NCBI RefSeq assembly: GCF_032854445.1
Contig: NC_088303.1
Span: 9,245,501 to 9,309,500, forward strand
Direction of reading: 5' to 3'
Length of the DNA stretch: 64,000 bases
Source: Liolophura sinensis
Taxonomy: Eukaryota > Mollusca > Polyplacophora > Chitonida > Chitonidae
Shown: piece after piece, positions 7,545-31,003 of the stretch
How positions within the stretch are numbered: position 1 is the first letter of the stretch
Layout of the letters: every line of letters begins with the position of its first letter
The notes under the pieces: generated by a model
What the model saw: only the letters and a program-made list of their open reading frames with translations
Databases searched by the model: none
What the model was told of the DNA's origin: nothing
Made by a program: the position numbers and the translations under genes

Positions 7545-7640
7545 TCGCTTAGCAGTCTCAAACGTTGGACAATCTCAAGCGCCGGACAATCCCAAGCGCC
7601 GGACAATCTCAAGCGCCGGACAATCCAGCAGTTTTAGGCG
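7545..7640 (-). repeat. Short 17-bp tandem repeat in the NRF-6-like 3' UTR
   Basis: Four to five copies of a unit containing GATTGTCCGGCGCTT, starting right after the stop codon. Its GGCGC core echoes the end of the coding sequence (GGCGCC-TAA), so it may have arisen by slippage at the exon end. Confidence 0.7.
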
Positions 7641-7753
7641 CCGAGCAGTTTTAAGATGATCTTCTCAAGACCCAGGAAAGGCGATTCAAACAGCACCGAC
7701 AAAATGAAGGCGGAAGCGTAGGCAATGGACAGATGTCCAAGGTAAAAATACAC
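7634..7753 (-). CDS. NRF-6-like exon 15: C-terminal end and stop
   Basis: Residues 1042-1080 and TAA: VYFYLGHLSIAYASAFILSV then LFESPFLGLEKIIL, the family's final membrane span followed by the E.P...LEK tail. Acceptor CTGATTGCAG, phase 0. Confidence 0.94.
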   Translation of the reverse strand: MYFYLGHLSIAYASAFILSVLFESPFLGLEKIILKLLGA

Positions 7754-10700
7754 CTGCAATCAGAAAACAAACTTACACAAACCATTGTGTTAGACTGAGA
7801 TTATTGTTCCATGCCATTCATGAACTCGGACATTGGTTGCTATAGACGAGGCGCAGACATACTAGTATAAAAATAAACTTCGTTCGATGACTTAGCCATT
7901 TTCCCTGAACGCAGACGTTTCTCTTTTGTCTTTTTATAGACTGACTATATGTCGGAAACCAAACAAGGAATCATAAATCACTTACGTCATTGTTTTGATA
8001 ACTTTATGTTGTTGATTAATTTATGTTTGAACTTATTATTACAACTGCTTCGTTAGCAAACTTCATTCTATGCTTGCTGGGATTCGTACAGACTGTGTTT
8101 GGAAGCACGGATTGTTTTCATTTTAGAAGAGAGTGTTAATCATTTGCTGTTCCAATAACGACGTCATTATGGAACGTATATTTTTTGCTGATCATCTAAT
8201 AAATATAAGAATAATATGTATAGAGATGTTTTGTTTGTTGCTTTGTTTTCGTACATCGATGGAAGAATTCAGTCTTATATAACACATGCAAAAAGTGTTT
8301 TTGTTTTGTTTTTACAGGATAAGGCATGTTCAGTAGTCAAGATTTTCGTCCATGACAATTTTATAAGAAAACATTATAAAAATTATACTGGGCGATAAAC
8401 CTTAACCCCCGGCCTTAACGTGTGTCTTTACGACAAACTCGAGAATCCATCCAGACAGTTGGATGGCAAACTAAGCACATTCGCAAAACATCAAGGCTGG
8501 TTTTTCATCCTAATGATTTTGCTTGAATGTAATGGAAGTCTAGTCTAGAGTATGTGCTTCTAGTTCAAATTTTGCCTCGTATTACCCCGGTGCTTCATAG
8601 TTAATCCCGCTCGTGTCATAACAGCTTTCATAACAGCTTTCATAACGCTCGTGTAGTCACTCAGGTAAATAAGAGCACTCCTGCGGTGCATGTGCACGAC
8701 TTACCATGACGTAGTCACTCAGGTAAATAAGAGCACTCCTGCGGTGCATGTGAACGACTTACCATGACGTAGTCCTCAGGTAAATAAGAGCTCTCCTGCG
8801 GTGCATGTGCACGACTTACCATGACGTAGTCACTCAGGTAAATAAGGGCACTGCTGCAGTGCATGTGCACGACTTACCATGACGTAGTCACTCAGGTAAA
8901 TAAGAGCACTCCTGCGGTACATGTGCACGACTTACCATGACGTAGTCACTCAGGTAAATAAGAGCACTCCTGCGGTACATGTGCACGACTTACCATGACG
9001 TAGTCACTCAGGTAAATAAGAGCACTCCTGCGGTACATGTACATGAACATGATCACTGGGTGGATCAGGTAGGCGGCATAGGTGAGGCGTGCCAGCGGGA
9101 TGAGGCCTTTCCAAGACAGGATACTGTTAATGTATCCTGTAAACATATGAGGCATTCACTAAGTATTCGCACACACTAAATACACTAATTGTAGAGCTTA
9201 TTCTTCCACAAGATCAAATGTATCTCACTCCCACCCAGCATACACGACGGTGGCATGTAAGATTATAGTCGGATAGGAACGCTTCCAAGCACATCTATTC
9301 CAGACTGGTTCCTCTGTTTACACGTGCAGCACATGTAGACTGTAAACTCTTTGACATATGATTTCTGTACATAGAATTTAAATTTAACAACCAACACTGA
9401 ATTCTGTTAGTTTCCACCATATCAGGCGTCACAACCTTATCTCCTCGCATAGAATTCGTTTACTTTCCATCATTTCAGGCGTCGCAACTTATCTCCTGAC
9501 AATGCATTCCGTTATTTTCATCACATCAGGCGTCACCAGCATATCTCCTGACACTGAATTCTGTTACCTTCCATCAGATCAGGCGTCACAAAACTTATTT
9601 CATGACATTAAATTAAACTACTTTCTATAATATCATGTGTCACAAATTTATCTATTGACATTAAATATGATAAAAAATGTACAGGATAAGGATTCGAACC
9701 AGAGCAAGGACGACAGTATGATGAATGACAAATGGTCACACGTAATCCGTGACAATTTACCTCAGTTTGAGTTCTTTTACTCCATTTCTTTCCAGCTTAT
9801 CATGCGTCATTGGTTCATCTCTTGACATTGAATTTCGTTATATTGCGATATAAAATCCTTAAGAGACTTATCTCTTTGCACTGAATTCCGTAACTTTCCA
9901 GTAAATTTTGCTAGTTAATCACTATCACTAGTTAATCTCCTGACATTGATTTCCACTACATACATGTGCCAGTGTAAGAGAAAATGTGTAAAGTTGTAAC
10001 TTTACAACGCACATGTGTCATGCGTCGCTGACTCATCTTCTCACACTGACATCCGTAACTTTACAACACACATGTACCATGCGTCGCTGACTCCTCTTCT
10101 CACACTGACTTCCGTAACTTTAAAACATACATGTACCATGCGTCGCTGACTCATCTTCACACACTGACTTCCGTAACTTTACAAGACACATGTACCATGC
10201 GTTGCTGACCGATCTTCTGACACTGACATCCGTAACTTTACAACACACATGTACCATGCGTCGCTGACTTATCTTCTGACACTGACTTCTTTAACTTTAA
10301 AACATACGTGTACCATGCGTCGCTGACTTATCTTCTGACACTGACTTCCGTAACTTTACAAGACACATGTACCATGCGTCGCTGACTTATCTTCTGACAC
10401 TGACTTCCGTAACTTTGCAAGACACATGTGCCATGCGTCGCTGACCGATTTTCTGACACTGACTTCCGTAACTTTACAACACACATGTACCATATATCGC
10501 TGACTTATCTTCTGACTCTGATTTCCATAACTTCACAGGCATACGGGTATATGTATGGCTTAATTCTCCTCTGACACTGATTCCCTTAATTTTATAACAT
10601 ACCATTCGCCACAGATTTTTGTCTTGAAATTGGCTGATCTCTTGTCGGACATATGGTGTTCCCTTTTATGTAAAAGTAATTCCTTTAATAAGCGACACTG

Positions 10701-13700
10701 ATACGACTTTCAGAGTGACAGACTTACCTCCCCTACCGGTATGGCAGGCGTATATCACCCAAGACACACATGCTGCGAAGGCTGGTCGTGAGAGGCTCTC
10801 ATAGGCCGTGCGGACTGGCTGAGACCAGGGTTGTCCACCTTCTTGTAGCTCTGTGTACCCGCAATAGACGAGGAAAAGCCCGACTGTGAGGGCGATTACC
10901 CATCCAAGTGTAGCCCATATCTGTGGATTGATCATCAGGACAACATGTTATAGCGCTATACAATTATTAGATACAGAACTAAGAACTCAGGCTAGAAAAC
11001 AAACTAATCTCTTCTTACTTAAATGGAAATGAAACAGATCCAATTATGGAATATCCCAGAAATACTTGATCACAATCCTCCGATGTTCCTAAAGTCAGCA
11101 GGGGTTATGGAGTGGTGTTTTTATTAATGGATCAACATATGCCGTTTAATCAGTCGATTCAGTCGACTTGCCTGATTTAATTTTATAACTACTATTCTAG
11201 GTAGGGTTAACATGAATACGTTTCCAGGGTTACTATCAGAACAAGATACATGGAAAGTGCACAAAATTCACATCCTTCTGTATTTGTGTAGACACCAGTC
11301 CTGTCTTTGCGGCACATAAATATTTCGGATGTCGTGTCGACGGATGCATCATTGAGAGTGATCTCCCTTACTTTAGCTTGCGAGGACAAGGGCTATATGT
11401 ATCTAATGAACCAATCAAACTCAACAACTGCGAATATCAGGAAAAATAACCGTGTAAATAGCCGTGTTAAGAAGGGATTCCTTTCATGATGTCGTCGGGT
11501 TGTATGTCGACTCCAGTAACACACAGAAATATCTTTGTCATTCCTGGATTCAAAAATGACATTGCAGAGAGACTAAGAGTAAGAAACATTATCACGCTCA
11601 GCCATATTTTGCACTCACTACGGATAGCTTCCTCTGTCCTCGCTTGTACATGATAAAAGCCAGTAGAAGGCCAATGGCGTACGCTCCGACTCGGCACCAC
11701 GGCTTCACGTATATGTCGTTGTAGTAGTTAGGTTTGCCTGGTGCTACCGTCTTTCTGTAAAGAAAATATGAATAAGAAATGTACAAAACAACTGTAGTGA
11801 AAATAAACCCCTTTTTTGTGCAGAATACACTTTTGTAACATAGTAGTGCAAAAGTCCCGACTGTCACAACATACCCATGAAGTCGGTGAACTGCATGCTG
11901 TCCGCAGCATGTCATGCACTCAGACGTTTTCTGGCTCAGGATTCAGTTGTTCGAAAGTGTGTTAGTTAAAGGTGGTATTAAGTCATTTTTTATATTTAAA
12001 GCTTTAGCCAGACTCAGCAGTGAATGCAGTTCTCCAAAGTCAAAGTATAACAGCAGTTTTAGGTCATATTTAATATTCTGGTACACACTTTTTTTAGGCT
12101 AAGTACAAAACTGAAGACTTGCCTTGAAGTTAAATCTAGTATGAAGCCTTAAACCACGTTTGAGCAAGTTAAAAGCCTAAAAAGTCATGTGCTCAAACTA
12201 AGAAACCAGTCAGAATTCAGTTATATCATCATCTTAAACCGGTTTGTTCTAATCGAAACGGTTTAATCGTTCTACAAGCAGAATGTCCACTGTGGAAGAG
12301 CCAAGACGTGGTTCTTCCAAAGCATGAGATTGTGGGCATTAATTCTCGTAATCGCCACCGCGTGGGTGATGAAAAATACCTTAATTTGAGAACAGTGTGA
12401 TGAAATTTCCATATAATACATGGGGCCGACCACTTTGCAATTTCCTATAGTTATTTTCCATGTTTCCTATAGTTATATAAGCCTAAGCAGAAACATTTTA
12501 ACTACGTGGTGACGTCCAACCCGATGGGCTTCAGTCCCACAAGGTAAGTTGATATGTTTCGCGGATTCATTCTTTCATACTCACATATTCTACACTCCAA
12601 TCATTATTCATTTATTCATACTTATATACCCCAGTTATTAAATAATTCATTCATACTCACATATTTTAAACCCTAGTCATTAAATAATTCATTCATACAT
12701 GTACTCACATATTCAACATGTTGCCAGCACCTCTGTTTTCAATTATGGCTGTGGATGTTATACTGGCTGCTACCAACAGTGAGGTCAAGATCACTCCGAC
12801 AACGGGAAAACTATATACGAAGATAAATTACCAAGTATAAAGCGATTATCAACAGACACGGAAAAACTATGCAAGCACGATATGTAAGAGTGAGTGAGTG
12901 AGTGAAAGTTTTAACGTCGCTTTCAACAATATTTCAGTTTTATCGCGACAATAAAACGTCAAGTAGTCGATCTACTACGGATACTTCATTTACTATTCAG
13001 TCAAAAAAGGACACCAGAAGTCACATAACAAACACAGAGGGTAGTTTAAAATCACAGCTTTCCTGCCATACCAATGGTAGAGAGAAAATCAAAAATAGTA
13101 TCACTTTCTACAGAATTGAAAAGTTCTGAAAGAGAGCTCACGTGATAAAAGGAATCTCGTACAGGAGCAAAGTCGCCACAGTCAAGCAATATGTGCTTGA
13201 CTGTGAACCGTTGATCACAAGCAAAGCAATGAGGAGCATCTTCTCCTTTCAACAAATACCCATGCGTAGCACGTGTGTGACCGATACGACACCTCCTCAA
13301 AATGCAAGAGCGGAGACGACGTCGTGAAAGGGAAGGTGCTGGACCAACAAACTGACGAATATCATGCAGTTTGTTGGTTGTCTGGTCATCCCATTGAGCC
13401 TGAAACAAGCGCTTGATATAGGAGCAAATAAGTGAACGCAAGTCCGAATATGGAACGTCAGTTTGGGTAGTAACGGAATGCAAAGCCGCCTTCGCGGCTT
13501 CATCTGCAGCAGTATTCCCAGGGATACCCATATGCCCGGGCACCCAACAAAAGACAATGATAAAATCTTCATTAAGTCGTTTAAAACATCTCCCTGATAG
13601 ACTGAATGTCTGGATGTACACGCGCGAACTAGCCCGAATTACCTGGAGGCAGGAAAGGGAGTCAGAGCAGATGAGAAATCTGCTACCTCCTAGCTCTGGA

Positions 13701-16700
13701 ATGGACCGAAGTGCGCACAAAATTGCCTTGGCTTCCGCAGTAAATACAGAACAGGAATTTGGAAACCGAGTTGAAATGGTTCTGGGCCCAAGGACAGCGG
13801 CAGAAGCCACGCCATCATCATCCTTGGAACCGTCAGTGAATATGCGGTGATAAAATTGATACTTTGAACACATATTACTAAACTCCTGCTGGTATACTAA
13901 AGGGTTGGTGGAAGATTTCTTCAGGGCGGAGAGCGAGGTATCAACCTGAGGCTCAGGACATAACCACGGTGGATCTTCCTGGATGCGTATGGGGGTGATA
14001 GTATCCAGCCCAAGTCCAGCTGCTTGCACATGTTCCTGGATGCGGACACCCAGTATAGGAACAATGGATGGCTTCTGAGCATATAAGTCTTCAAATTCCG
14101 GATGGAAGACACAATCAAAGGCTGGGTTGGATGGATTGGCTCTAAGCTTGGTGATATACTGTAAGGATAGTTTAGTTCTTCGAAGCTCCAGGGGAGGCTC
14201 GTTTGCCTCAACATACAGACTCTCCACAGGAGAGGTACGGAAAGCACCTAAGCACAACCGTAGGGCGATGCACCGTAGGGTGATGTACAGTATTGAGTCT
14301 CTTCAATTGGGAGCGAGACGCACCTCCATAAACACCGCAGGCATAGTCTAGCTTAGAACGAATCAGTGCTCGATAGAGCTGAAGTAGGGTTTCATGATCC
14401 CCTCCCCATCGAGCACTAGAGGCAACCTTCAAAATATCAAGCGCCTTTAGGCATCTGGCTCTAAGATAATTAATGTGAGATTTAAATGTAAGGTGCTTAT
14501 CGAAGATCACCCCGAGGAATTTTGCCTATGGCACAACCTTGATGGGGGACCCATCTAAAAATACCTTGGGGTCTTCATGGGGGAAGTACTTCCGACAAAA
14601 GTGTACACAGTTAGTCTTCGACTTGGAGAACTTAAATCCGTTCTCCAGTGCTCAGGCATGGATTTGTTAAGGCAAATCTGCAGCTGTCTCTCAATAGTGT
14701 GCATACCTTTGCCTCGACAAGAGATACCAAGATCGTCCACAAAAAGGGACGCATTCATACTAGGAGATAAAACTCTGGCAAGGCTATTAATCTTAATGCT
14801 AAAGAGAGTAACTGATAAAATGCTGCCTTGAGGAACCCCCTGATCTTGTTCAAAGTAGTCAGATAGGGTAGCCCCAATCCGAACTTGGAAGTGACGATGG
14901 TCTAAGAATTTACGAATAAAGTCAGGAAGCCGACCTCTAAGTCCAAATCCATGCATATCTTTCATAATGCCATATTTCCAAGAAGTGTCATATGCCTTTT
15001 CCAGATCAAAAAAGACAGATACGACATGGTCACGATTAACGATACCGTTCTTAATAAAGCATTCTAGACGAACAAGGTGATCAACAGTACTGCGATTCTT
15101 TCGAAATCCACATTGAATGTCGCTTATCAACTCATTAGTCTCCAAAAACCAAACCAAGCGATCGTTAATCATCCTCTCCATAGTCTTGCATACACAACTG
15201 GATAAGGAAATAGGACGATAGTTATTTGGATCGGTAGAATCCTTTCCGGGCTTTGGGATGGGGACAATAATAGCGTTTTGCCATGAGGCAGGAAAATTCC
15301 CGGAAATCCAAATGGTATTAAAAATTCCAAGAAACACCCCCAAGGAAGATTTTGGAAGGTGTCGTAAAAGCTGATAGTGGATATCATCTGGCCCTGGAAT
15401 TGAGTCATGGGCCTTGCTCAGGGATGCGGATAGTTCATGTAGAGAAAATGTAGCATTATAAGATTCTTCATTTGAGGATGTAATATCAAGAGGACTTGCC
15501 TCGGTCCGTTCCTTTTTACGCTGGAACTGAAGCAAGTAATTATCTGAAGACGAATGGTGCGCAAAAGAAGCGCCAAACCCATTGGCTATGTCAAGTTTTT
15601 CTGTCAAAGAATTATTCCCGTCTTTAAGATGATTGACAGTGACATTGGATCCCTTGCCTTTGATGCGTTGGATCATATTCCAGACTTTTGACATAGGGGT
15701 ACGATGATTAATCTTAGAAACATAACGTTTCCAAGTCACGTTTGGACTGTTTGATAGTCCTACGGGCTTCAGCTCGAGTACGCCTAATATCGTCTAAATT
15801 ACCGGGAGATGGTCTACATCAGTACGCGCGCTCAGCACGTTTCCTGAAACGCCTAGCTCGTTTACAGCCCTCCGTGAACCACGGTTTCTTAATATGGGGA
15901 ACCGCACAAGATTTCGGGATACATTTGGAGGCTACATCGATTAGCTGATCCGAGAATTGCTGGATAGGATCAACTGCATCAAGAAAAAGGTCGCTAGTAA
16001 GTGTTTCACCACACAGAACAGCAAAGCGAGGCCAGTCTGCTTTATCACAATGAAAGCGTGGAAGGGAGGAAGATACCGGCTCCTCAAGGGTAAGTATGGT
16101 GGGGAAGTGGTCGCTTCTGTACAGATCATCATGGACGCTCCAGCTGAATTCCGATCTTAGCCCTGCATCAGCCAGAGCTAAATCAAGGACCGAATAAATG
16201 CCCTTTGCAGGATGAAGGTAAGTATGTGTGCCATCATTTAAGACGCATAGAGAGTTATTAGATATAAAATCCTCCAATACAGAGCCCTTCTGATTACGTT
16301 TAGAGTCACCCCAGAGAACACTATGGGCATTAAAGTCACCCAAAAGAAGACACGGTTTAGGTAATTGATCATATAAATTTTGCAGCTCTTGTTGGTGAAG
16401 AGTAGAAGAAGGTGGTATATAAATAGAACAGATTGTTAATACTATACCCAGTGTGATACGCACCGCCACCGCCTGCAAATCGGTGTTCAGTGCCATTCTA
16501 TGGTGTACTACACCCTGCCTAATCAAAAGAGAAGAACCCCCTGGTGCCTTTCCATTCGTAGACGTGGCAACAGCGTGATGAGATACATAACCTCGACATT
16601 GATAACTAGGATCAGTCATCAGAGTTTCCTGCAAGCTAAAAGCTATAGGATTGAGGTCTTGAGCTAACATCTGGAGGTCTGCGAGGTTACACCTCAATCC

Positions 16701-19700
16701 TCTACAGTTCCACTGTATGTTCTTTGTAGTAGCCATTATTAATATTTATTTATTCTTTTTCTTTTTTCTGGACTTCTTATACATCGCTGCCCTACGCTCA
16801 GCAAAATCCTCCTGTGACAACGTTATAAACTTCTTCTGCTTTTTAATCTTGTCAATTTTAGAGTCTCGTCGCAATGTGCGATAATACGACCCCAGGGATG
16901 TTGAGACGGGTACCAAGACCTCACCCTTGCCATTGGTATAGGCAGGCAAGTCTTCGGGTGCATCCAATTCCGAAAGAGATTCCTCCATATTGGATTCTCC
17001 ACCAGCCCTAGACATATCAGATTGCTGAGAGCTTCCCTGAGGATCAAGGCAATCTGCTATATCTCTAGTGTCTAACTGTGACATTGGTGACGGGTCAGGG
17101 CTGAACGTGCTACCCCATAAGGACGGGCTCTTACCAAGTGCACCTTTGGAGGCCGTCACGCCACTGGATTGCGTCTCCTTAATGCAGGATGGCGTAGTAT
17201 TCGAAATTTCTGACGATCTAGGGGGTGAGGAGGTATTCCAGATTTGACTCATACTGACAACCCACTCCGGGCTATTTGACGTCTGAGATGCCTCGCAAAG
17301 GCTCTGGGGCCCACCTACTACTGGCGATTCGCTTAACTTCCTGACCTTATTTGTAGCATCAATGCGCTTATTTCGAATCTTTTTGCTGGAGGATATGGAG
17401 TTAGTGACAACTTGCCACTCTCCAGCTTCCTCGTTGTCAGCAGTAGAGTTATCCAAAGTCCCTTTATTTTGTTGACTGGAAGGAACAGACTCGGCAGAAA
17501 CCCCAATTTCCATATCATCCCCATGTCCCTCACTATAATTACCATCATCATCTCCTCGACCTTCATTCTCATCTTTATTGTCACCTTCAACTTCATAAAC
17601 ATTACTATCTTTATCATCATCATCATCATTATCATTGCAATCGTTATCGTCATTATCGCCATTGTCATTTTCATCGCTCAACGGGCAGTCCTTTTGAAAG
17701 TGGCCTGCCTGTTAACACTTGAGGCATTTATCGTTTAAAGGACAGTCGGCCTTGAAATGTTCTGCGCTATCACAGATGTGACAGGCACGGACCTGACCTC
17801 TGTACTACAAAGGAATTCTAAAATTCCCAACCGAAATTGATTGTGGAATGATCTCGGTCACACCACTCATGTAAATACGGCGCAAACCATTCTCAAGTGA
17901 CCTATCAAAAAGGTAATGTTCCCGGCTGACGTGATGGACCGTGAATGAGAAGCCGCTAGTCAACAGCTGTTCCTTCACAGCGTAGCCACTGTAACATTCC
18001 AGACATCTCTAGAGACATTGATTAGTCCCTTTAAGACTTTAGGCCCACTCCCCACTAAGTCCTTTAGCCGATTGTATACTTCAACCGGTTGTACACCTCC
18101 CTGTATTACAAGCTTAAGGCTTAAGTGTCTATTTACTCGCCCTGCCCACAACATTGTGGGCCAGGGCGAGAACTACTACCCTAAAGAGAGGACCACAACT
18201 ATGCGTTTGGAACAGTGTGGATGCTGAGCGCAAAATAGATACGATATTACAAAGTGGAAATGCACTTAACTATGTACAGGTTATTTACAGAGAGGCTAGT
18301 GAATACGTCCTGCCTCTAAGAGCGACAGAACGTAATGTCGTACCACCTTCAGACTGGGTGACCACTAAACAAAAGCTGAGAGCACAAAGGCTAGTTCCAC
18401 AGCCAGCCAGGGACTCACGATATATAATCATAACACCATGCTAATTACATGAGGAAGTACGAAAAGAGGCACCCAAGATAGGCCACTCTCTTGAAGAAAT
18501 AATACGTGGTGAAAGTATTGAACGATTTAAGTAACATGTGTGACTGGGACATGTTTTTTTTTACCTTTTCTTAGGTATGGATAAACCAAAAGCAAGTTAA
18601 GATGGGATTTGAAGTACGTAGCAAAACATTTTAAAACCTTTACAGCAAGTCGGCATTTGCAGTGAATTAAACTTTGTTATATTTTCTACAATAATAGTGG
18701 CATTCATTTAGCTTCTCTTTGACATAAAAGAGACGATTTTGTCAGAGAGCCAATTCACCGTGAATAGTACGGTCTACCTATTCACGGGCTTGAAACTATA
18801 CAAAAGAGCTTCGGAGAAGAAAAACTATTTTCCCCAAACTGTTGAAGAATGTACTTGCCAACTGTTAGTGTTCCTTTCATGTTACATGTATCTCAGCTGA
18901 CGAGAAACCATGTCCAAACATGTCGTAATTGATGAGAACATCATACTACTCACAAATACAGGGCCAGAATGAAGACTGGTGAGATGATGTAGAACTGCAT
19001 GTCGTTAGCCAGGTACCATGTCCATCCCATACACTAAAACACACAATACATGTACACATACTTACATATGCTGTTTTATAGGGAATCCACAAGACGTCGC
19101 AACTAAATAACATATCAAAATGCCATTCACTGGCGGTATATATATTGTACGTCTTACAGCATGCATGAGGCCGAAATTTTGTTGATAAAAACCCTGATTA
19201 ACATTGTGTTAAAACGAGGACGGCTTTATTCTTGCGTCATCAACCATGGCACAATACAATTGTCAAAGGTCAATGAAAGTTACAGTTATAGTCCATTCAA
19301 CCAAAGTTTCGACTCAAGATGATTTACAACAAAAAGCAGAAGACTCCATTCTTTGCTATATGTATGTCTAAGGCATGTGAAGTAGATATCAACACACTTA
19401 TACAGCCATTAAGCTAGGGTAGTTTTCATTGTTTAGGCCAGGATTGTTTGTGTTCAGGACATTTGCATGCACTTGTGCAGCTTAGAATCCTTCTTTTACA
19501 GATTTCCAAATATCTGCATAATTTCCTGCTTGTAAATAAGGGCACCGTGTTTTAACATTTTTCAGCGTGATTATGTTTTCCCGCTAAAACTGCATTAACT
19601 CATCTAGTACAGGGCAGTTTGCACCTCCAACTGAGATACATGGTGTAGAATTTCCGTCCTGTATTTGACGATGTCGTGAGACTTGAGTGACTGACGAACG

Positions 19701-22700
19701 GCAATGTTATCTACATAAGCGTTTGTGGAAGTTGTAAGGCTCGACCTAAGACGGTGTATATGTCATTGGTTTCAATCAAACCATTCCAAGAGTTTATCTT
19801 CTTTTGGACGATACCGAGTGCGACCGACTCAAATTAAAAATGGGAGTTAGCAAAAGTTTGGATTGCTGGCGATGTAACAGGTACATTTGCGTTAATTGTG
19901 ACGTTATGGTCTGTATTATTCATGAGGTGATATGAAGTAAGAATTACTGAAAGATTACAGGAATCATGTTTTTGTAGAGCTTCGACATGTTGAGGACAAC
20001 ACAAGCGAAAGAGTTGATTTCCAGGTTAGTAAATGGAAGAGTACAGATCGGTATAAACGTCAAATCTAATCAGCTATACATGCATATATACATTTATTAT
20101 CAATATAACATCAACCTGTCTAAAAAAGCTTATACGCATCGTTAGAATACAGTCTCATTGACCCTTATCATTTTACTTATTTATTTTAATGCACAAGACC
20201 TTAGACACTAAATCAATAAATGAATATATTTCACTGACCCACTGCATCGGTTGGTCATTATATTTTCTCTGACCAATATATAACCCCTCTCTTCACTGAC
20301 AGTTAATATGATACATTTAACCAGTGGTCATTATAGATAAACGCACCTTTATGATTATTCTACTACTTAACGTAATAATACATGTACTAACTCTTCTTCA
20401 CAATGTACTAACTCTTCTTCACAATGTACTAACTCTTCTTCACAATGGGAACATCCTGGAAAAATCATATGAAGTATGTAATTGATTTCATATTACATTT
20501 TTTGCTACTTTTACTAGTTTATGTGAACATAAAAATAAATAATAAACACATTAAGTGTTCTTCCATCAATAACATTTCGAACCAAACTAAGTGAAGAATA
20601 CTGGTATAATGCAGACCGTTAATGTTACTTTTGGGCATCATTGTCTCTGTTCGGTATAGCGTAGAATTTGCTGTCTACATGTACGTGTAGGCCTACTGAT
20701 CTAGTACCCTCCAGGCCTTGGTCAAGCATATCCAACTTTCCTGATCTCTTCCTGTGGCCAAAGTCAATAACTTGCTTAAACAAAAGGATGATATTACTAA
20801 AAGGAATAGATTATTTACAATCAAAAAGCGTAAATTTTGGAAAATGTCCGTGTTGTTAAATTGCTGTTAAACCACACGTTATAACATATAATATTACATC
20901 TATTTATTACTAAATGTAAAGCATGTTTGACCCATTTGATGTGTTAGTATTCATACCACTGCTATAGTTCTTGAATTAGGTATAAATCTAGCCCCGTGGT
21001 ACTTAACAGCCACTAGTACATGAATAAATGTCTGTTTCTATATAATAAGCTACCACTGTAAATCTCCTTTATACTACAAATTATTATGATTAAAATCTTT
21101 TTAACTGTCAACTCAAGTTTGCTATGGTACGAATGTTATCGCAATCCTTCTGACTCATAGTCCATTTATCACTTGGTATTGACATGTAGCTCATCTTTTC
21201 CTGCTTAATCAGCTGGGGTTTTCAATGGCTGCCACCTGTTTATAAACACATAGCATTGCCCGCATTACTGCTTTACCTGGGTCAAACCACCTGGATTAAA
21301 CCTATATCTGAAGAGAGGCTATTTATATGTTAACATATCGGAGTGGTGTCAAGATCAATGCTGATCAATGATAACGGGGTGGGCACGCGACTCCAGTCAC
21401 TAGCTGCACAGCAATATATATTGGGTACAAAGTTTAAAGGCAAATAAGTTTTCGACCTAAGAAGGATTTTTTCGTGGACAGGTACATTAGTATGTCCAAG
21501 GTCACATTTTTTATGTTTCCGTCAACACATACGGCAGGGTTTTATTGAGTATTGCTCTTCAGAGATGTCCACATAGTTTCGTGAATAAGATTGAGTGTGT
21601 TTTGACTTGAGTTAAACGCCCGCGCAAGCGAATGAATTCTATATGTGTTGCATCTAGTAGGGAAAATCCAAAGTATAATAAAATACTTGTAAATCACAAA
21701 TAAATAAATATATGATATATACTCGCTACACAGTTGACGAACGGAGGCCATTGCGGGCGACATTGTAAGACACTGACGGCCTATTCACAGTGGCGTCAAG
21801 CACTGGAAGATGTCACACGCAGAAGTCGCTATAATGATGGAGAGGTTAGACAGGGTTCATTCCTGAGTCCGGTCATACCCAACATTTTACGTTTAACGAT
21901 ACTAATATCTCCTCCGTTATACCGGTCACCATGAGTCCGAAAACATGAGAGATAAACTCACTATATCCACGTGTAAACTTTGCATATGGACTGATATACT
22001 CACCATGTCGTCGACGCGCACCAGGTTGTTGATGTAGAGAAGGTTTGTCCACCAGTTTGTCTTGCAGTTCTCTGCGTTAGACATGTCTCTAGGCAGCAGC
22101 GGGCCGAAGATAACGTACTTGTGTAATCCCGTGAACATCATAATTACAATCATGTATATCGGTGTCAGCCTAACAGAAACAAGGGAAAAGGCAACAACTA
22201 CGTAAATCGGTGTCAGCCTAACAGAAACAAGAGCAAAGGCAACAACCATGTAAATCAGAGTCAGTCTAACAGAAACAAGGGAAAAGTCAACAACTACGTA
22301 AATCGGAGTCAGTCTAACAGAAACAAGAGCAAAGGCAACAACCATGTAAATCAGAGTCAGTCTAACAGAAACAAGGGAAAAGTCAACAACTACGTAAATC
22401 GGAGTCAGTCTAACAGAAACAAGGGAGAAGGCAACAACCATGTAAATAGTAGTCAGTCTAACAGAAACAAGAGCAAAGGCAACAACCACGTAAATCGGAG
22501 TCAGCCTAACAGAAACGAGGGAAAAGGCAATAACCACGTAAATCGGAGTCAGTCTAAGAGAAACAAGGGAAAAGGCAACAATGATCATGTAACTCGGAGT
22601 CAGCCAAAAAGAAAAAAGGGAAAACGCACAAGCAATCATATAATTCGGGGTTATCCTAAAACAAGGGAAAGGCAACAACAATCATGTAAATCAGAGGCAG

Positions 22701-25700
22701 TCTATGGAAACAAGGGAACGAGGAACAGCAATCATGTAAATCGGAAACAGCTAAAGGGAAAAGTGTGGCGGTGGTACATTAGAACCCCAACAGAATATAA
22801 TACGGAACAGTTTCGTTTGAACAATCAACTAAAATGCATATATGGCAGTGTTGTAATTAGGTAATCTTGGGCATCCTGTAAGCCCCAACCACGTTAACAA
22901 GCTCACGTATGAAAAATCAAGAGGAAACTTTGGTTCACTGAATACGCCACTAAAGGAAGTACAAGTACATGGAAAGTACTTTGTGTAATGAAAGTTACAC
23001 AAAGCAGCAAAAAGTGCGTACGAATCCTTGTACATTTATATCAAATTAGTATGCGGAGTTTTTTAATGGAACTACGAAATCTGGTGCAGACGAACACTGT
23101 GCAGGCGAACCTTGTATCCTTTAGAACTATATGAATCCAGGTCTTCTAAAGTCTGCATTCCTTACCTCCAAAACCTGTGTACGTAAAAGACTACCATCTT
23201 TGCGCATGTCACTCTACCCTTTCGCTTATCGATGTCTTTGAAGAATAGATACGCCACCAGAAACCCACTGAAAAAGCACGAAAAAATGACAGTCGGCATA
23301 AGATTTTTTTTGCCTCAAATCTGGTCGTGTGCCAATATGTGCGATGTACATATGTTCACTGTTTATAAGATGGCATCTTAGGCTACATAATTGCGTTTCA
23401 AAAAAGGATTTCATCTTCAGTATATTCAGGTGCTGTAGAGATGCATTTCCTAGGAGGAACCGAGTACAAACGAGCAAATATTTGTTACTTATTGTCAGAA
23501 AATAATCAGAGGTAAGCCTGACAGATGTTCCCAACGTTGTCACCTCATTTGATGCTTTATACATTCAGAAAGCCGGGAAGTTAGTGGAACTCGGTCCTTT
23601 CGATTGTGTTGTTGACCTTGTCTTATAAAGTTGAACATGACACATAACAGGGGTTTCGCAAACCTGACGTAATTCTGAATTAATGTCCTCGTTGGCCTTG
23701 AATTAGAAAGACCCTAACCTTCAGAGAGGTAAAGAAGCAGCTAGTGCATCAGCCATAGGACAGCTTGCAAACTTGGTTACCTTCTGTTTAGTCTCTTCAC
23801 AAATCATTTTTTGATATTGTTTCCTTGCTATCAGTAGCTTCTGTTCATTAAATGAATAACTTAGAATCCACCCTGCTATCGTTTTCGAGACAGCGACACT
23901 AATATTTTACATGGTCATCTTAGTTCTCAGTGTAAGCTCAAGGATTTGATACTTGATTTGCATTATCGTGCATCTGAATGGTCACAGTTCCACACGGAAA
24001 ACACAAAGTATCAATTTTTTCTGTTATTGTTGATTTCTATTGTCCTACAAAGGCTCAGATAAGCTTTTTGTAGGAATTTGTGGCCTAAAGGTTAAAATAA
24101 ATTTACCTATATATATTTAAGGGCTGGGAAGTTCCTAAGACATTAGGAAAATCTCACCAGGAAAGCCAACAAAACATCACAAGGGTGGTGATATCTGACA
24201 CGAAGCTACACCCAGGATCACAAATGGTTAGGTGAGTTCTCCGGACGATGCTGGATGTGGCCGACACGAACCTAGCAACTCAGCCACGTTCCGATGATAG
24301 CCCACTTGTTATATTTGTATTAATTGCAACGATATGATCTTCATAATTTAAAGGTGTTGAATTATTGAACAGTAATTTTAAGATCATGTGACACCTGTTC
24401 TGTGGTGAACAGCTTTGACACTTTCAGGACAGTAGAGCGGACAGCACCGAGTTCCATAACGGTAAATGTAAAAGAACACATCTGTAATCTTTTGGAAGCC
24501 GGGAAGAATATTTATTTATTTATTTGATTGGCGTTTCACGCCGCACTCAAGAATATTTTACTTATGCGACGGCGGCCAGCATTATGGTGGGAGGAAACTC
24601 GGGAGCTCGGGGGAATCGGGAAGAATAAGTGAAGGGAGAAAAGATTGGTGTATTTATTTAATTGGTAAGATTTGCTCACCAGAACACTGAAAACTTGTGC
24701 ACTGAAAGTCTTCTCTGACCGCTGAGGATGTGCCAATTGAGAAAGTCTCACCTGAACACGAAGACTGTGTCAAATGAGAAAGTCTCAATTGAGCACTGAG
24801 AAAATCTCACCTGAGCACGAAGAACGTGTCCACTGAGAAAGTCCCGTATACTAGCGGCATGAAGGTGAATCGCTGGAGGTAGCCAGGAGCGTCGATCATG
24901 TTTTCTACAAAAGTCATGTATCAGATACAATAAAACAACATATTAAATATCATAAACATCTGCACTGATAACATTTGAATATTGCAGACCAGATTCTGGT
25001 TATCCAGCACAAAGAATGCGCCTTGGAAACATGTTGCCACTTTGTCTGCTAATGCAAATGTCTGGTTATCCAGCACAAAGAACATATTCTGGTAACATGT
25101 TGCCACTACTCATAGGTTATCCGTCACAAAGAACACATATTTACTAAACGAAACTTCACGCCACCGTTTATTCGGATGCTAGTCATCCTGTGGTTTGTGC
25201 CACAGCTAGGTTTCAACGGTGTGTTAACAGACATTGCCATAGTAAGATATGTAATGTTTTATAAAATATAATAATATAATATATTATATATTATTTACAT
25301 ATATAATATTTTATATCATGTTTGTCGTGGACTTCACACCTGACGATTTCTTTAGATAAATGACCCCTTTGGACTGTAATCTCAAATGAAAAAAAAATAC
25401 AGCCTAAGAAACAAAGCTACACAAGCGTACCTGCCGTCTGGTTTTCCGAAATAGAGAATACACCGTAGTAGAAAGTGTGACAGAGGATGACCCAGGCCAT
25501 ACTCAGGTAACGAATGCCGTTCAAACATGTAATCGAGCCCTTAGGGTGTGTGGCAGCCAAGATTTTTGGGACATTTGACAGAAGTGAAAAGCTTAGCCAC
25601 AATTTCACGGCCAGACTCTCTGAAAGTAAAAGAACACATGGTTGTTTATTCAACTACAAGCACAGATTTTTTTTGACGTATTTTTACGTTTATGTACGTA

Positions 25701-28700
25701 TTCAGCCTATGGACGTTTAAGGAAGCATAACCCCAAATACATCTTGGCTATTTTGGCCATGCGACCATACTGATCAAGATTGGCCACGAAAGCTTCTATG
25801 GCTTGCCAATAAATATTAATTTGACATGCTATATGTACTTATTTATTTGACTGGTGTTTTGCTCAAGAAAATTTCCCTTATATGACAGCTGTCAGGTTTA
25901 GCAAAGCGGAGTGCTCTAAGTAAGCCATCGATGGTCGCCAAAGGTATCTTTTGACTTAAAGCCTCTGACAAGAGGGAGAGAGAGGGGGGAAGGGGAGGGA
26001 GAAAGCTCGTTTCGAGCACCGGACTTTCATGTTCAAGTGCCAGTGCCCTAAACACATGCGCCAGCGAGACCGCAGCATATAGTTCATGCTGTTCAAATTG
26101 ACTGAACATGCACGTACAGGTAAATGGGTGCTACATAGTTTTCAGTTGAACCTACTCATTTGGACTAAGTAGTTACACCTTTAAACAAAGTAATAGTTCT
26201 ATTTTCCAAATTTTACCTCGTAACGTACTGTAAATGCCTGTATTACCAACAGAAGTTTTAAAGGAAGCCAATGAATATATGGGAAAATGGTTTCACTTCT
26301 CACCTAAATCGTCGAAAGGAATAGGAAAATTGGTTTTCAATGAAAATGGTGTTTTTACCTCTCTTCCTTGGAGCCGCCTTGACGGTGTGCGCCTCTGCCA
26401 TCATAACATCGTCATTAGTCGATCCAGGCGCAATGTTGCTTATCTCGTTTTCCATTGAAAATGAGGTTTGAACCACTCCATTGTGGTTTTCCTCTACAGG
26501 ACCTGATCCGTTAACACGGAGATTATGGCCGGCCTTTTCAGAAACATACCCTCCATTTGTGTGACCAATATCGGTTGAACGTGCTCCAGTAGTCTTTGAA
26601 GAAATGGCCCCGTTGCTTGATGGCGAAAGAGTCGCATTCCGCGGCTTAACAATGATTTCAACCAATGTTCCGATGGCAGTTAATGCTAAAAGAATACTAA
26701 GTATTACTCTGAAAACAAAAGTATTTGGCACACTACAGCACATTAAATACAAACAAATCGTTCTTTAACTCAAAACAGCGGGGCTAAAAAGAAACATTTA
26801 ACTCTCTGATTTCCATACCCCATATGGCGTTTATATTTAAAAAAAGATTCGCTATACAGATTAAACATATACCGAAGTGTGACAACCGTTGATATAAATA
26901 GTAAAGGAGACTAACATTGCTGCTATTGCGGAGCCATCCTGGGAAAGGTTTGCATCATTGCCACAGAACACGTCCCGTACACTGATGTCAATTTGGGACA
27001 TAAATCCTGCCAAGAAAAAACAATTTGTATCTTAATGACTATTTAGTCCTTCCTACCGTTATGAATAAAACCATATACATATATGATTGGCTTTGGTTTT
27101 CTGATAAATACAATTTATGTCTTGGTCTCTTCATACTTTGTCATTATAAGTAAATTGATGTACTAAATTTAACTGTTAGTGTGAAAATTGACTGCTATGA
27201 GTTAATTACGTGTAGGTTATGCTTTTGGCATTGCCAGAGTTTTCTCGTGAACAGAATGTCATAAATTACGTATGACGTTGACGTTGATGATGACGTTGAC
27301 ACACCAGAGTTTTCTTGTGAACAGTATTTTATGAATTAAGTTAATGATGACGTTGACACAACAGAGTTTTCTCGTGAACGGTATGTTATGAATTAAGTTA
27401 ATGATGACGTGGACACATCAGAGTTTTCTCGTGAATAGTATGTTATGAAATAAGTTAATGATGACGTGGACACATCAGAGTTTTCTCGTGAATAGTATGT
27501 TATGAATTAAGTTAATGATGACGTTGACATATCAGAGTCTTCTCGTGAACGGTATGCTATGACTTAAGTTAATGATGACGTTGACACATCAGAGTTTTCT
27601 CGTGAACGGTATGCTATGAATTAAGTTAATGATGACGCTGACACACCAGAGTTTTCTGGTGAACAGCATGTTATGAACTAAGTAAATGATGACGCTGACA
27701 CATCAGAGTTTTCTCGTGAACGGTATGTTATGAATTAAGTAAATGATGACGCTGACACACCAGAGTTTTCTCGTGAACGGTATGGTATGAGTTAAGGAAA
27801 TGATGGTTTTGACAAACCAGAGTTTTCTCGTGACAAACTTTATATGAGGTAAGGAAATTATGTTGCTTACATACCAGAGGTAAGCATGGCCTTCACGTCG
27901 GATCCGGCACAGGTGTTAGGCAGACACAGGCCCCAGGAGAGCCGGACGGGGATCCCATGGGTGTCCTAAAGACAAAGACGAGGCATGTAAATCGCAATAA
28001 ACTATGTGTAACGTACATGTAACTGGACAGGGTCAAGATATCATCGCTTTAAATTTATTAAGCAGTCATACACGAAAGATTTTACCATGTGGCGATGTAT
28101 CACATTTTACCATGTGGCGATGTATCACATTTTTACCATTTGGTGATGTATCACATTTTGTATCACATTTGATCATTTGGTGATGTATCATATATGATGA
28201 TGTTTCTTTACCTGTTATCTCCAGATGGCTCGTGAACGGCTGATGTCTGACCATCTGACCAGTACTATTTTGCATAAATCAGTATTGGACAAATGAAAAG
28301 AAAAGTTGATATAAATACCAATGTGCTTTGAGATCTGTGATTTTGAGTGTACCTGGGTTTTAATATTGCATCAACTATAGACCTACTGAGTGTAAACCCC
28401 TCACAATACTTTATATTGGTTATCTGTTGTAGCGAGCAATAAAGAATCATCCAAGACAGGTTAAATTGTGTTGTTTAAGCCGTATAAGTGTTAAACAAGC
28501 AGCTTATACTAACTGAGATATACAGAAATAAATGGACTTTGAAGGTATCGTATCCTATTGAGAAATGGTCTTACCACGCCGAGACTGGTAACAAAAGACT
28601 TGGGAAGGTCAACAGTTAGACGACAATAATGGCCTTTAAATCGCTCATAGTCCACTCCCACCTTGTCCCGCCGACGAATGATAGTCTGGGTGTCCCGAAC

Positions 28701-31003
28701 ACTGACGGACAAACACTGGTCATAGTTGCCTACCATGTACAGGTTACCTTTCAGGATTCCAGCACCAGGTTTGCCTGTGGCATCAAGCACTAAAGACGAA
28801 AAGTAATACTTTAAAAAGGTTTCAAAGTGAAAATATTTTGTCCACAAGACTGATAATAAAGCAGTAAAATAAAAGATGCCAAACCGGGAAGGCGTAAGTA
28901 GAATTTCACATCGAAAAGATCTGTTTTAGTCAAAGTGAAATAATTAATTTATCACGCTGTGATTTTGCAGCAGCTAAAATACACAGTGAGAAAATTACAA
29001 CAGTCATCAATATCAAATGGGCGTATAAACCGATACAGCGATGACACCAGGTTACAGATATGGGCGTTCCGCTTTGTGTCACACCATGTGTCACCTACGC
29101 GTTTTTGGGAGAGCATACATCAACTTTCAGTGTAGGAAAAAAATCCCAAGTACTGGTAAGTAAGCTTGGAACATAGTATCCTTATAATGCTCGTGGGAAC
29201 CTAGGATAGACCTGTTGTGTCTGAGTGGTGATGTCATTTTTTACAACGTCATAATAACTTAGGCATTCCTCCTGTCCTACCTACTTCTTCAATGTAAATA
29301 AAAGATATCATTTGTGTGCAGGACGCTGGTAATTCAGATTTAATGTGAAGTACACTCTCCAAGTATGAACAATGCTAACCATATGTCACGTAATCATGAC
29401 CGGTAGGCCTGCCATAAAATCGGTAATGGTTGTTGTTTATGGATGGAGGAAAGTGAGAAGGGAGCGGAGAATCGCCAATCATTCGAGAAGTAGATTCAAA
29501 AGGGCGATCTCACTGCCCTAGAGCTAATCGTCTTGTCCACTAATTGCGGATTTAGTGTCAGGCTCTAAATACAATGGCATTTAGAGTATAACATTTTGGT
29601 TTTGTTTATATCTAAAAAGCAACACCAAAAACAATGATTATTCCCCCGGTCTCATTCATCGTGCTGAGCGCTAAACAGTGGGAATTTCTAAAGTCTTTTG
29701 GTATGACAGGACCCGAGCTTGATCCTGTATCTCCCGACTTCGAGGCGGATGCTCTGGCCATTAGGCCACTGAAGCGATCAGAAAATTCTTGGTGTTAAAC
29801 AAAAGGTCAGTGAAATAAACAAATCACCAACAAGCGACAGTTTGCCTGCTATGTCTCTGTCACTTAAGGACGTGATCATTACAAATATATGGTAACATCG
29901 GTAGAGCGTGTTGCGCAACACTACGACAAGAGCATTTACCATGCTTACCTGTCTCTTTACTGTAAGTTGTCCATGGACGTTAAGCAGGTAGCTGACTAAG
30001 GCCTTTATTACAAGTGTTGCCTCCCATCAGGTTACTAAGCGGTGTATTACAAGTGCTGCCTGTCATCATCTTACTAAGGTGTCTATTACAATTGCTGCCT
30101 GTCATCAGCTCATTAAGGTGTCTATTACAAGTGCTGCCTGTCATCAGCTCACTAAGGTGTCTAGTACAAGTGCTGCCTCTCATCAGCTTAATAAGGTGTC
30201 TATTACAATTGCTGCCTCTCATCAGCTTAATAAGGTGTCTATTACAATTGCTGCCTCTCATCATCTTAATAAGGTGTCTATTACAAGTGCTACCTGTCAT
30301 CAGCTTACTAAGGTGTCTAATACAAGTGCTGCCTGTCATCAGCTTAATAAGGTGTCTATTACAATTGCTACCTGTCACCAGCTTACTACGGTGTCTATTA
30401 CAATTGTTGCCTGTCATCAACTTACTATATTTCTGTATCTTACTACATATACTCGCAATACAAAAAGTTTATCGGAATTGCACACCAAGCATAATATACA
30501 GGTTGTTTGTAGGCCTACGCGTAAAAGGGGATATTTTAAGAATGTATCAAATGTTATTGTAAATGAAGGCAAATGTATTTACCTAAGCATTAGTTGCGCA
30601 TTGAATATGACAACTACGGTTTCTGTGAGTTATTGGAATTTTGGGCAGAAAGAGAAAGTTTATTACAAATGAAAGCAGAATAGACTGGCATGCATCGTCT
30701 GCATTTTGAAACAGTCTTCAAATGTTTGGAGTAATGTTTGGGAAATACTGCCGTAACAAAATATCTCCACAAGACCATTGTTTTGGACGAATGTCTATCA
30801 GTAAATGTGGTACATTTTTAGCTAAAAAATTGCGACTTTTCACAAGTTTACAACATTTTTGGGGGTTAATTACAAATTTAGGGAGAAATTCAACTTTGGA
30901 ATTTGATTTGTATTTTTACATGAACATGCTATGGCTTACATCAGTTAAAACTGATTCAACCTGGGTATTAAAATTATCTGGAGCTGATACTAATTGTTAA
31001 TGG

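What the first reader, a model, noticed from the sequence alone, without database searches (positions are those of the whole stretch)
7634..27965. Splice-junction-anchored minisatellites in one gene
In the NRF-6-like gene, tandem arrays begin at exon edges and each unit includes the splice site. Four cases are clear: donors of exons 3, 7 and 14 and the acceptor of exon 9. Exon 11 donor is probable and exon 13 donor weak. Unit lengths are similar (48-59 bp). That 4-6 of 14 introns show this seems far above chance. It suggests a recurrent process that duplicates DNA across exon-intron junctions, or selection for extra U1/U2-type sites. I know of no named system like this; tandem duplication across splice sites is known in intron gain, but not as arrays repeated along one gene.
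Basis: partly seen in the sequence, partly recalled or inferred. Interest (0 to 1): 0.9.

Follow-up and report, generated by a model that had tools for sequence, protein, structure and literature searches.

The report
Splice-site minisatellites ("mirages") in a chiton
In one gene of a chiton, five exon edges have been repeated several times in a row into the neighbouring intron; the same oddity is known from amphioxus under the name "mirages", and it is most likely local DNA stuttering that splicing tolerates rather than a new system.

Summary
The minus-strand NRF-6-like gene was rebuilt for 14 exons with a continuous frame. Tandem arrays cross 5 of its 27 tested splice junctions: donors of exons 3, 7, 11 and 14 and the acceptor of exon 9. 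The exon 13 donor is not supported.

The lack of a named parallel does not hold. Tandem duplications of exon/intron borders are known in amphioxus Adh3, globin, TnC and PGBD5 genes as "mirages". The window matches the chiton Liolophura japonica, where further arrays start at exon ends of GH31, gelsolin-like, Mot1-like, RPC1 and SNF-family genes.

"Far above chance" is only partly upheld. About 16% of positions in this gene's introns test as tandem, so 5 of 27 is unsurprising per position. Random placement of arrays gives P = 0.02 (exact contacts) or 0.004 (grid contacts), for a gene chosen for the pattern. SNF-family junctions show 4 of 76. Genome-wide donor-motif tests disagree: 1.0-, 3.2- and 2.4-fold.

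Best reading: recurrent local tandem duplication, tolerated because splicing uses the exon-side site. A donor-centred bias is not excluded. Extra sites show no clear sign of selection.

The parts
7634..28789 (-). NRF-6-like acyltransferase gene, exons 2-15 (the 5' exon or exons were not modelled)
   Evidence: continuous frame and GT..AG introns; Pfam Acyl_transf_3 and NRF
27224..27879 (-). 57-bp array at the donor of exon 3; the exon-side copy is diverged and includes 5 exonic bp; junction at 27875/27874
   Evidence: score 15 against a null maximum of 13; TRF 27283-27833; alignment; interval
24639..24843 (-). 59-bp array (about 3 copies) at the donor of exon 7; 33 exonic bp copied; junction at 24811/24810; copies at +59 and +131 keep GTGAG
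   Evidence: score 26; alignment; alternative donors
22144..22754 (-). 48-bp array (about 11 copies) at the acceptor of exon 9; 24 exonic bp copied; junction at 22170/22169
   Evidence: score 31; TRF 22146-22628; units
12559..12719 (-). about 48-bp degenerate array at the donor of exon 11; 5-10 exonic bp copied; junction at 12709/12708
   Evidence: score 18; alignments
8653..9046 (-). 58-bp array (6.7 copies) at the donor of exon 14; the unit is 46 exonic plus 12 intronic bp, homology reaching about 53 bp into the exon; junction at 8994/8993
   Evidence: score 40; TRF; units; overlap
   Evidence: unit cross-similarity 40 against shuffled maximum 22

Best explanation
These are mirages: ordinary short-period minisatellites that arose by local tandem duplication of DNA that happened to include an exon edge. 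The exon-side copy stays functional and is the one spliced. The other copies fall inside the intron, so the mRNA is unchanged. The coding side cannot be invaded further, which is why each array seems to start at the exon. Copy number then drifts and copies homogenise or decay. Shown: arrays cross five junctions, exonic overlap varies from 5 to about 53 bp, units of the five arrays are unrelated, copies differ in divergence, and similar arrays start at exon ends of other genes. Inferred: the duplication mechanism (slippage or unequal exchange) and use of the exon-side splice site.
For: Five junction-crossing arrays. No two of the five junction units resemble each other above the 95th percentile of shuffles. 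Copies range from 0.92-0.98 identity (exon 14) to 0.76-0.78 (exon 3), so the events seem to differ in age. Some 16% of tested positions in this gene's introns (70 of 444) and about 9-10% in the window and in SNF flanks test as tandem, so junctions need not be special. SNF-family genes: 2 of 33 donors and 2 of 43 acceptors in arrays, against 4-19% of positions 20-800 bases into the intron. CAGGTAAGT occurs as tandem pairs as often per site as the same motif read backwards: 516 per 9,807 against 256 per 4,849. Use of any of the 14 alternative donors scored downstream of exons 3, 7, 11 and 14 would bring in a stop codon, so only exon-side splicing keeps the protein. In amphioxus, RT-PCR suggests that mirages do not disturb regular splicing, and haplotypes differ in copy number (PMC3087553).
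Against: Random placement of arrays in this gene's introns makes this many junction contacts unlikely (P = 0.004 for 6, 0.02 for 5; post hoc). Two wider donor-motif tests exceed their backward controls: CAGGTGAGT pairs 1,288 per 10,097 sites against 110 per 2,731; MAGGTRAGT 2,486 per 33,488 against 743 per 24,245. Distinct MAGGTRAGT arrays at the start of C1 also exceed the control (see rival 1). No RNA data and no related species were available.
Confidence: 0.72

Rival explanations
1. A mutational process favours splice donors: some feature of donor DNA or of its transcription (for example R-loops, pausing, or a G-rich core such as AGGTGAGT that promotes minisatellite growth) seeds tandem duplication there.
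For: 4 of the 5 junctions hit are donors. Placement test P = 0.004-0.02. CAGGTGAGT tandem pairs per site 12.8% against 4.0% for the backward motif; MAGGTRAGT 7.4% against 3.1%. Distinct MAGGTRAGT arrays in the first 5.47 Mb of C1: 17 in the listing, at least 20 with three more shown, against 4 for the backward motif; P = 0.025 or 0.008 given the single-site counts.
Against: CAGGTAAGT shows none of this: 5.3% against 5.3%, 20 against 8 distinct arrays listed on C1, P = 0.39. SNF donors: 2 of 33. The exonic length copied varies from 5 to about 53 bp, so nothing is anchored on the site. Pair counts are swollen by a few large arrays, only one kind of control motif was used, and the start of C1 is unusually rich in arrays.
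Confidence: 0.2
2. Extra splice sites are kept by selection, as decoys or for alternative splicing. The exon 9 case could add whole numbers of residues in frame.
For: All 6 complete exon 14 copies, the exon's own included, keep GTAAGT (units were found by that motif; no complete copy lacks it) and 10 of 11 exon 9 units keep AG. Nine upstream exon 9 acceptors at -48 to -486 score 7.7-10.4 against 10.6 for the real one, are in frame and open.
Against: In the exon 3 array 7 of the 11 copies beyond the exon lack GT (5 AT, 1 TT, 1 GC). Mean identity of splice-motif columns against other columns is 0.86/0.95 (exon 14, lowered by a truncated unit), 0.86/0.84 (exon 9) and 0.89/0.85 (exon 3): no clear excess. 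The 14 alternative donors scored all bring stops, as do the exon 9 acceptors at -532 and -581. An open 48-bp unit is not unlikely by chance.
Confidence: 0.04
3. The gene model or the assembly is wrong and the arrays are not at real junctions.
For: No RNA evidence was available here.
Against: The spliced frame is continuous through 14 exons and its product matches two Pfam domains. The assembly is HiFi with mean read length 8.3 kb (PMC11068029), far longer than these arrays of 0.65 kb or less.
Confidence: 0.03
4. The arrays come from a mobile or introner-like element that inserts at junctions.
For: Similar unit lengths.
Against: Units of the five junction arrays are unrelated to each other and contain the local exon sequence.
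Confidence: 0.01

Closest known systems
[quoted passage not shown] PMC3087553 and PMC3902484, passages)
   Same: Tandem copies of a segment spanning a donor or acceptor, in the intron; Adh3 units of 10-72 bp; copies with intact or decayed splice signals; both border types hit.
   Different: Here in a mollusc and at five junctions of one gene. Splicing, allele-length variation and somatic instability were not testable here. In the passages read, amphioxus genes have one or two such borders each.
[quoted passage not shown] review PMC3443670; potato RdRp case PMC4974935, where the duplicate crosses an intron-exon boundary; passages)
   Same: Tandem duplication that includes splice signals.
   Different: No new intron was seen to be made here; existing introns lengthen and the modelled exon pattern is unchanged.
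Ordinary intronic minisatellites / VNTRs
   Same: Unit length, copy number, decay and homogenisation.
   Different: The terminal copy includes coding sequence and the working splice site.

Membership tests
Mirages | tandem repeat unit spans an exon/intron border | tested here: met
   5 of 27 junctions; exonic part 5-53 bp
Mirages | both 5' and 3' borders can be involved | tested here: met
   4 donors and 1 acceptor
Mirages | many but not all copies keep AG/GT signals | tested here: met
   exon 14: the 6 complete copies keep GT; exon 3: 4 of 11 copies beyond the exon keep GT; exon 9: 10 of 11 units keep AG
Mirages | do not disturb regular splicing | not testable with these tools
   no RNA data; only the continuous frame and stops behind the 14 alternative donors scored
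Mirages | allelic or somatic length instability | not testable with these tools
   one assembly only
Intron gain by tandem duplication | a new intron position arises | not tested
   no orthologous gene from a related species was compared
Introner-like mobile element | related sequence at several introns | tested here: not met
   no junction unit resembles another above the 95th percentile of shuffles; not searched genome-wide

The most novel reading that the evidence does not exclude
In this chiton genome splice donors are preferred seeds of minisatellites, so that exon ends, above all those followed by GTGAGT, are repeatedly amplified into introns; mirages would then be a widespread mutational by-product of donor sequence or transcription, shared by chitons and amphioxus, and a standing supply of duplicate splice sites for intron gain and exon extension (as with the open, in-frame repeats upstream of exon 9).
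Probability: 0.2. Interest if true: 0.75.

Novelty: new member of a known kind. Interest (0 to 1): 0.42.

Why it matters
In the searches made mirages turned up in print only for amphioxus. Finding several in one chiton gene, and more in unrelated conserved genes, would show that they are not a cephalochordate oddity. They supply natural tandem duplicates of splice sites, useful for testing how the spliceosome picks among near-identical donors or acceptors and whether such arrays feed intron gain. A HiFi assembly with transcript-based gene models exists for this species, so the genome-wide test is cheap.

Tried and rejected
Exon 13 donor: rejected. Selection on extra sites: not supported. Shared or mobile unit: rejected on the units compared.

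Pfam scans of the longest ORF on the 5' side and on the 3' side of 20 donor-motif arrays on C1 gave one match above cut-off on each side (GH31 at L069 5'; Fer2_2 at L071 3'). Pfam alone therefore shows no side bias. Gelsolin-like, Mot1-like and RPC1 identities came from four 5' translations picked by eye out of 20 (L075 gave nothing of use); the 3' sides got no equal effort.

Paralogues: the PF01757 search found one weak place, so no paralogue comparison was made. Of 109 SNF places, 63 lay in held loci; 33 donors and 43 acceptors passed the score and margin filters (a smaller run gave 2 of 26 and 2 of 35); the rest were dropped. Junctions there were chosen by score near the HMM match, so some may be wrong.

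In one search the rows for copies at 48, 57 and 59 with identity 1.00 (exons 3, 7, 9, 11) are trivial self-alignments and were not used; one search replaces those of exons 3, 7 and 11. The exon/intron side labels are reversed for the acceptor array, and its exon 9 alignment holds one spurious unit, left out of the counts above. Distinct arrays on C1 were counted by hand from the listings, single-place hits included. Listings stop at about 100 places and can miss reverse-strand places: one search shows three arrays in 4.5-4.7 Mb that one search did not list. The donor counts 20 (listing to 93.4 of 96.4 Mb) and 17 are therefore lower bounds. Because of this I moved the donor-bias rival and the novel case from 0.18 to 0.20 and the main reading from 0.74 to 0.72.
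Full report
Source. G000 has 609,464,459 bases in 632 contigs; contig C1 is 96,433,062 bases and C9, which holds the window, 37,343,639. The Liolophura japonica assembly paper gives 632 scaffolds, 609,495,693 bases, longest 96,433,062 and N50 37,343,639 (PMC11068029, passages). The window is therefore almost certainly from this chiton.

Gene. The 689-aa product matches Pfam NRF (9.3e-15) and Acyl_transf_3 (4.3e-23). Junctions are inferred from frame and homology; no RNA was available.

Observation. A window of 20 exonic and 20 intronic bases at each junction was aligned with the 260 bases on the intron side; 360 tests on shuffled sequence never exceeded 13. Donors of exons 3, 7, 11 and 14 and the acceptor of exon 9 score 15, 26, 18, 40 and 31: 5 of 27 junctions. 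The exon 11 acceptor is borderline at 13. The exon 13 donor scores 7 and fails also at long reach. Exonic overlap is 5 bp (exon 3), 33 (exon 7), 24 (exon 9), 5-10 (exon 11) and about 53 (exon 14). Identity to neighbouring copies runs from 0.76-0.78 (exon 3) to 0.92-0.98 (exon 14). The five junction units do not resemble each other. Among all eight units compared, the two arrays inside intron 13 are clearly related, and exon 14 against one of them is marginal (19; 95th percentile of shuffles 17, maximum 20).

Is it above chance? Tandem copies are very common here: with the same test and cut-off, 70 of 444 intron positions of this gene (16%), 73-82 of 790 over the window, and 94-102 of 1,020 in flanks of SNF-family exons. 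Five of 27 junctions has P = 0.44 against 16% and 0.11 against 9.6%. Shifting the array mask around the gene gives 3.9 expected against 6 on a 5-bp grid, P = 0.20. Placing each of 14 arrays of 60 bp or more at random within its own intron, with 46 bp overhang allowed, gives 1.8 contacts expected; 6 on the grid has P = 0.004. One of these, the exon 11 acceptor, fails the exact test, and five contacts has P = 0.02. With all 21 intervals the grid count is 7 against 2.3, P = 0.003.

Elsewhere in the genome. For SNF-family exons, 2 of 33 donors and 2 of 43 acceptors reach the cut-off, no more than positions further into the intron. Of these, one donor (L028) is a clear mirage by eye; one acceptor hit is a simple repeat. 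This gene against that sample: Fisher P = 0.05. Of 20 distinct arrays listed on C1 that carry CAGGTAAGT in neighbouring units, four begin at the end of an exon recognised by homology: GH31 glucosidase (L069), gelsolin-like (L067), a helicase-like protein that I take for Mot1/BTAF1 from recall (L051) and RNA polymerase III RPC1 (L061). So the phenomenon is not special to this gene.

Genome-wide motif counts, each with the motif read backwards as control. CAGGTAAGT: 9,807 against 4,849 single sites, 516 against 256 tandem pairs at 34-64 bp, equal rates. CAGGTGAGT: 10,097 against 2,731, 1,288 against 110, 3.2-fold. MAGGTRAGT, which includes both: 33,488 against 24,245, 2,486 against 743, 2.4-fold. 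Pair counts are swollen by large arrays. By distinct arrays in the capped listings, CAGGTAAGT on C1 gives 20 against 8 (P = 0.39), and MAGGTRAGT in the first 5.47 Mb of C1 gives 17 (at least 20) against 4 (P = 0.025 or 0.008). That stretch of C1 is rich in arrays: 6 of the 20 CAGGTAAGT arrays lie there. A donor bias is possible but not shown.

How it works. Most likely these are ordinary local tandem duplications whose unit happened to include an exon edge. The exon-side site is used and the rest is intron. Selection on the coding side fixes the array end at or near the exon. Against selection for extra sites: in the exon 3 array 7 of 11 copies beyond the exon lack GT, and splice-motif columns are not clearly set apart. 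The 14 alternative donors scored after exons 3, 7, 11 and 14 would each bring a stop. The exon 9 array is different: nine upstream acceptors at -48 to -486 are in frame and open and would add 16 to 162 mostly hydrophobic residues; two further ones at -532 and -581 bring stops. Whether any is used is unknown.

What is known. [quoted passage not shown] The PGBD5 paper lists Adh, TnC, globin and PGBD5 (PMC3902484, passage). The original Adh paper (Canestro et al. 2002) is not held and was seen only as a citation. Tandem duplication as a route of intron gain is reviewed in PMC3443670 (passages), and a case crossing an intron-exon boundary is in PMC4974935 (passages). My searches found no mollusc mirage in print; that library lacks most subscription journals.

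Verdict. Real, recurrent, and a known kind seen in another phylum with an unusual number in one gene. The excess over chance is open.

Noticed in passing
window 22144-22754, minus strand: The exon 9 acceptor array is an open frame in the exon's own phase: nine upstream acceptors (-48 to -486) would each insert 16 to 162 mostly hydrophobic residues into a membrane protein without a stop.
   Followed up: partly
window 13055-17700, minus strand: A LINE-like element lies inside intron 10 in the same orientation as the gene: ORFs that look like endonuclease, reverse transcriptase and RNase H, in several frames (identity recalled, not searched).
   Followed up: no
window about 24500-24690 and 29615-29800: Short repeats that look like molluscan SINE-type elements, the second with a tRNA-like head (recognised by eye, not tested).
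   Followed up: no
G000 C1:0-5.5 Mb: The start of contig C1 is very rich in donor-motif arrays: at least 20 distinct MAGGTRAGT arrays in 5.47 Mb (17 listed, three more), and 6 of the 20 CAGGTAAGT arrays listed for the whole contig.
   Followed up: no
L028 (minus strand), C5:10272882-10273151: An SNF-family exon donor (CTTCGA|GTAAG) is followed by several diverged copies at about 51 bp and, further down, a second copy of the exon end: a mirage in a neurotransmitter-transporter family gene.
   Followed up: partly
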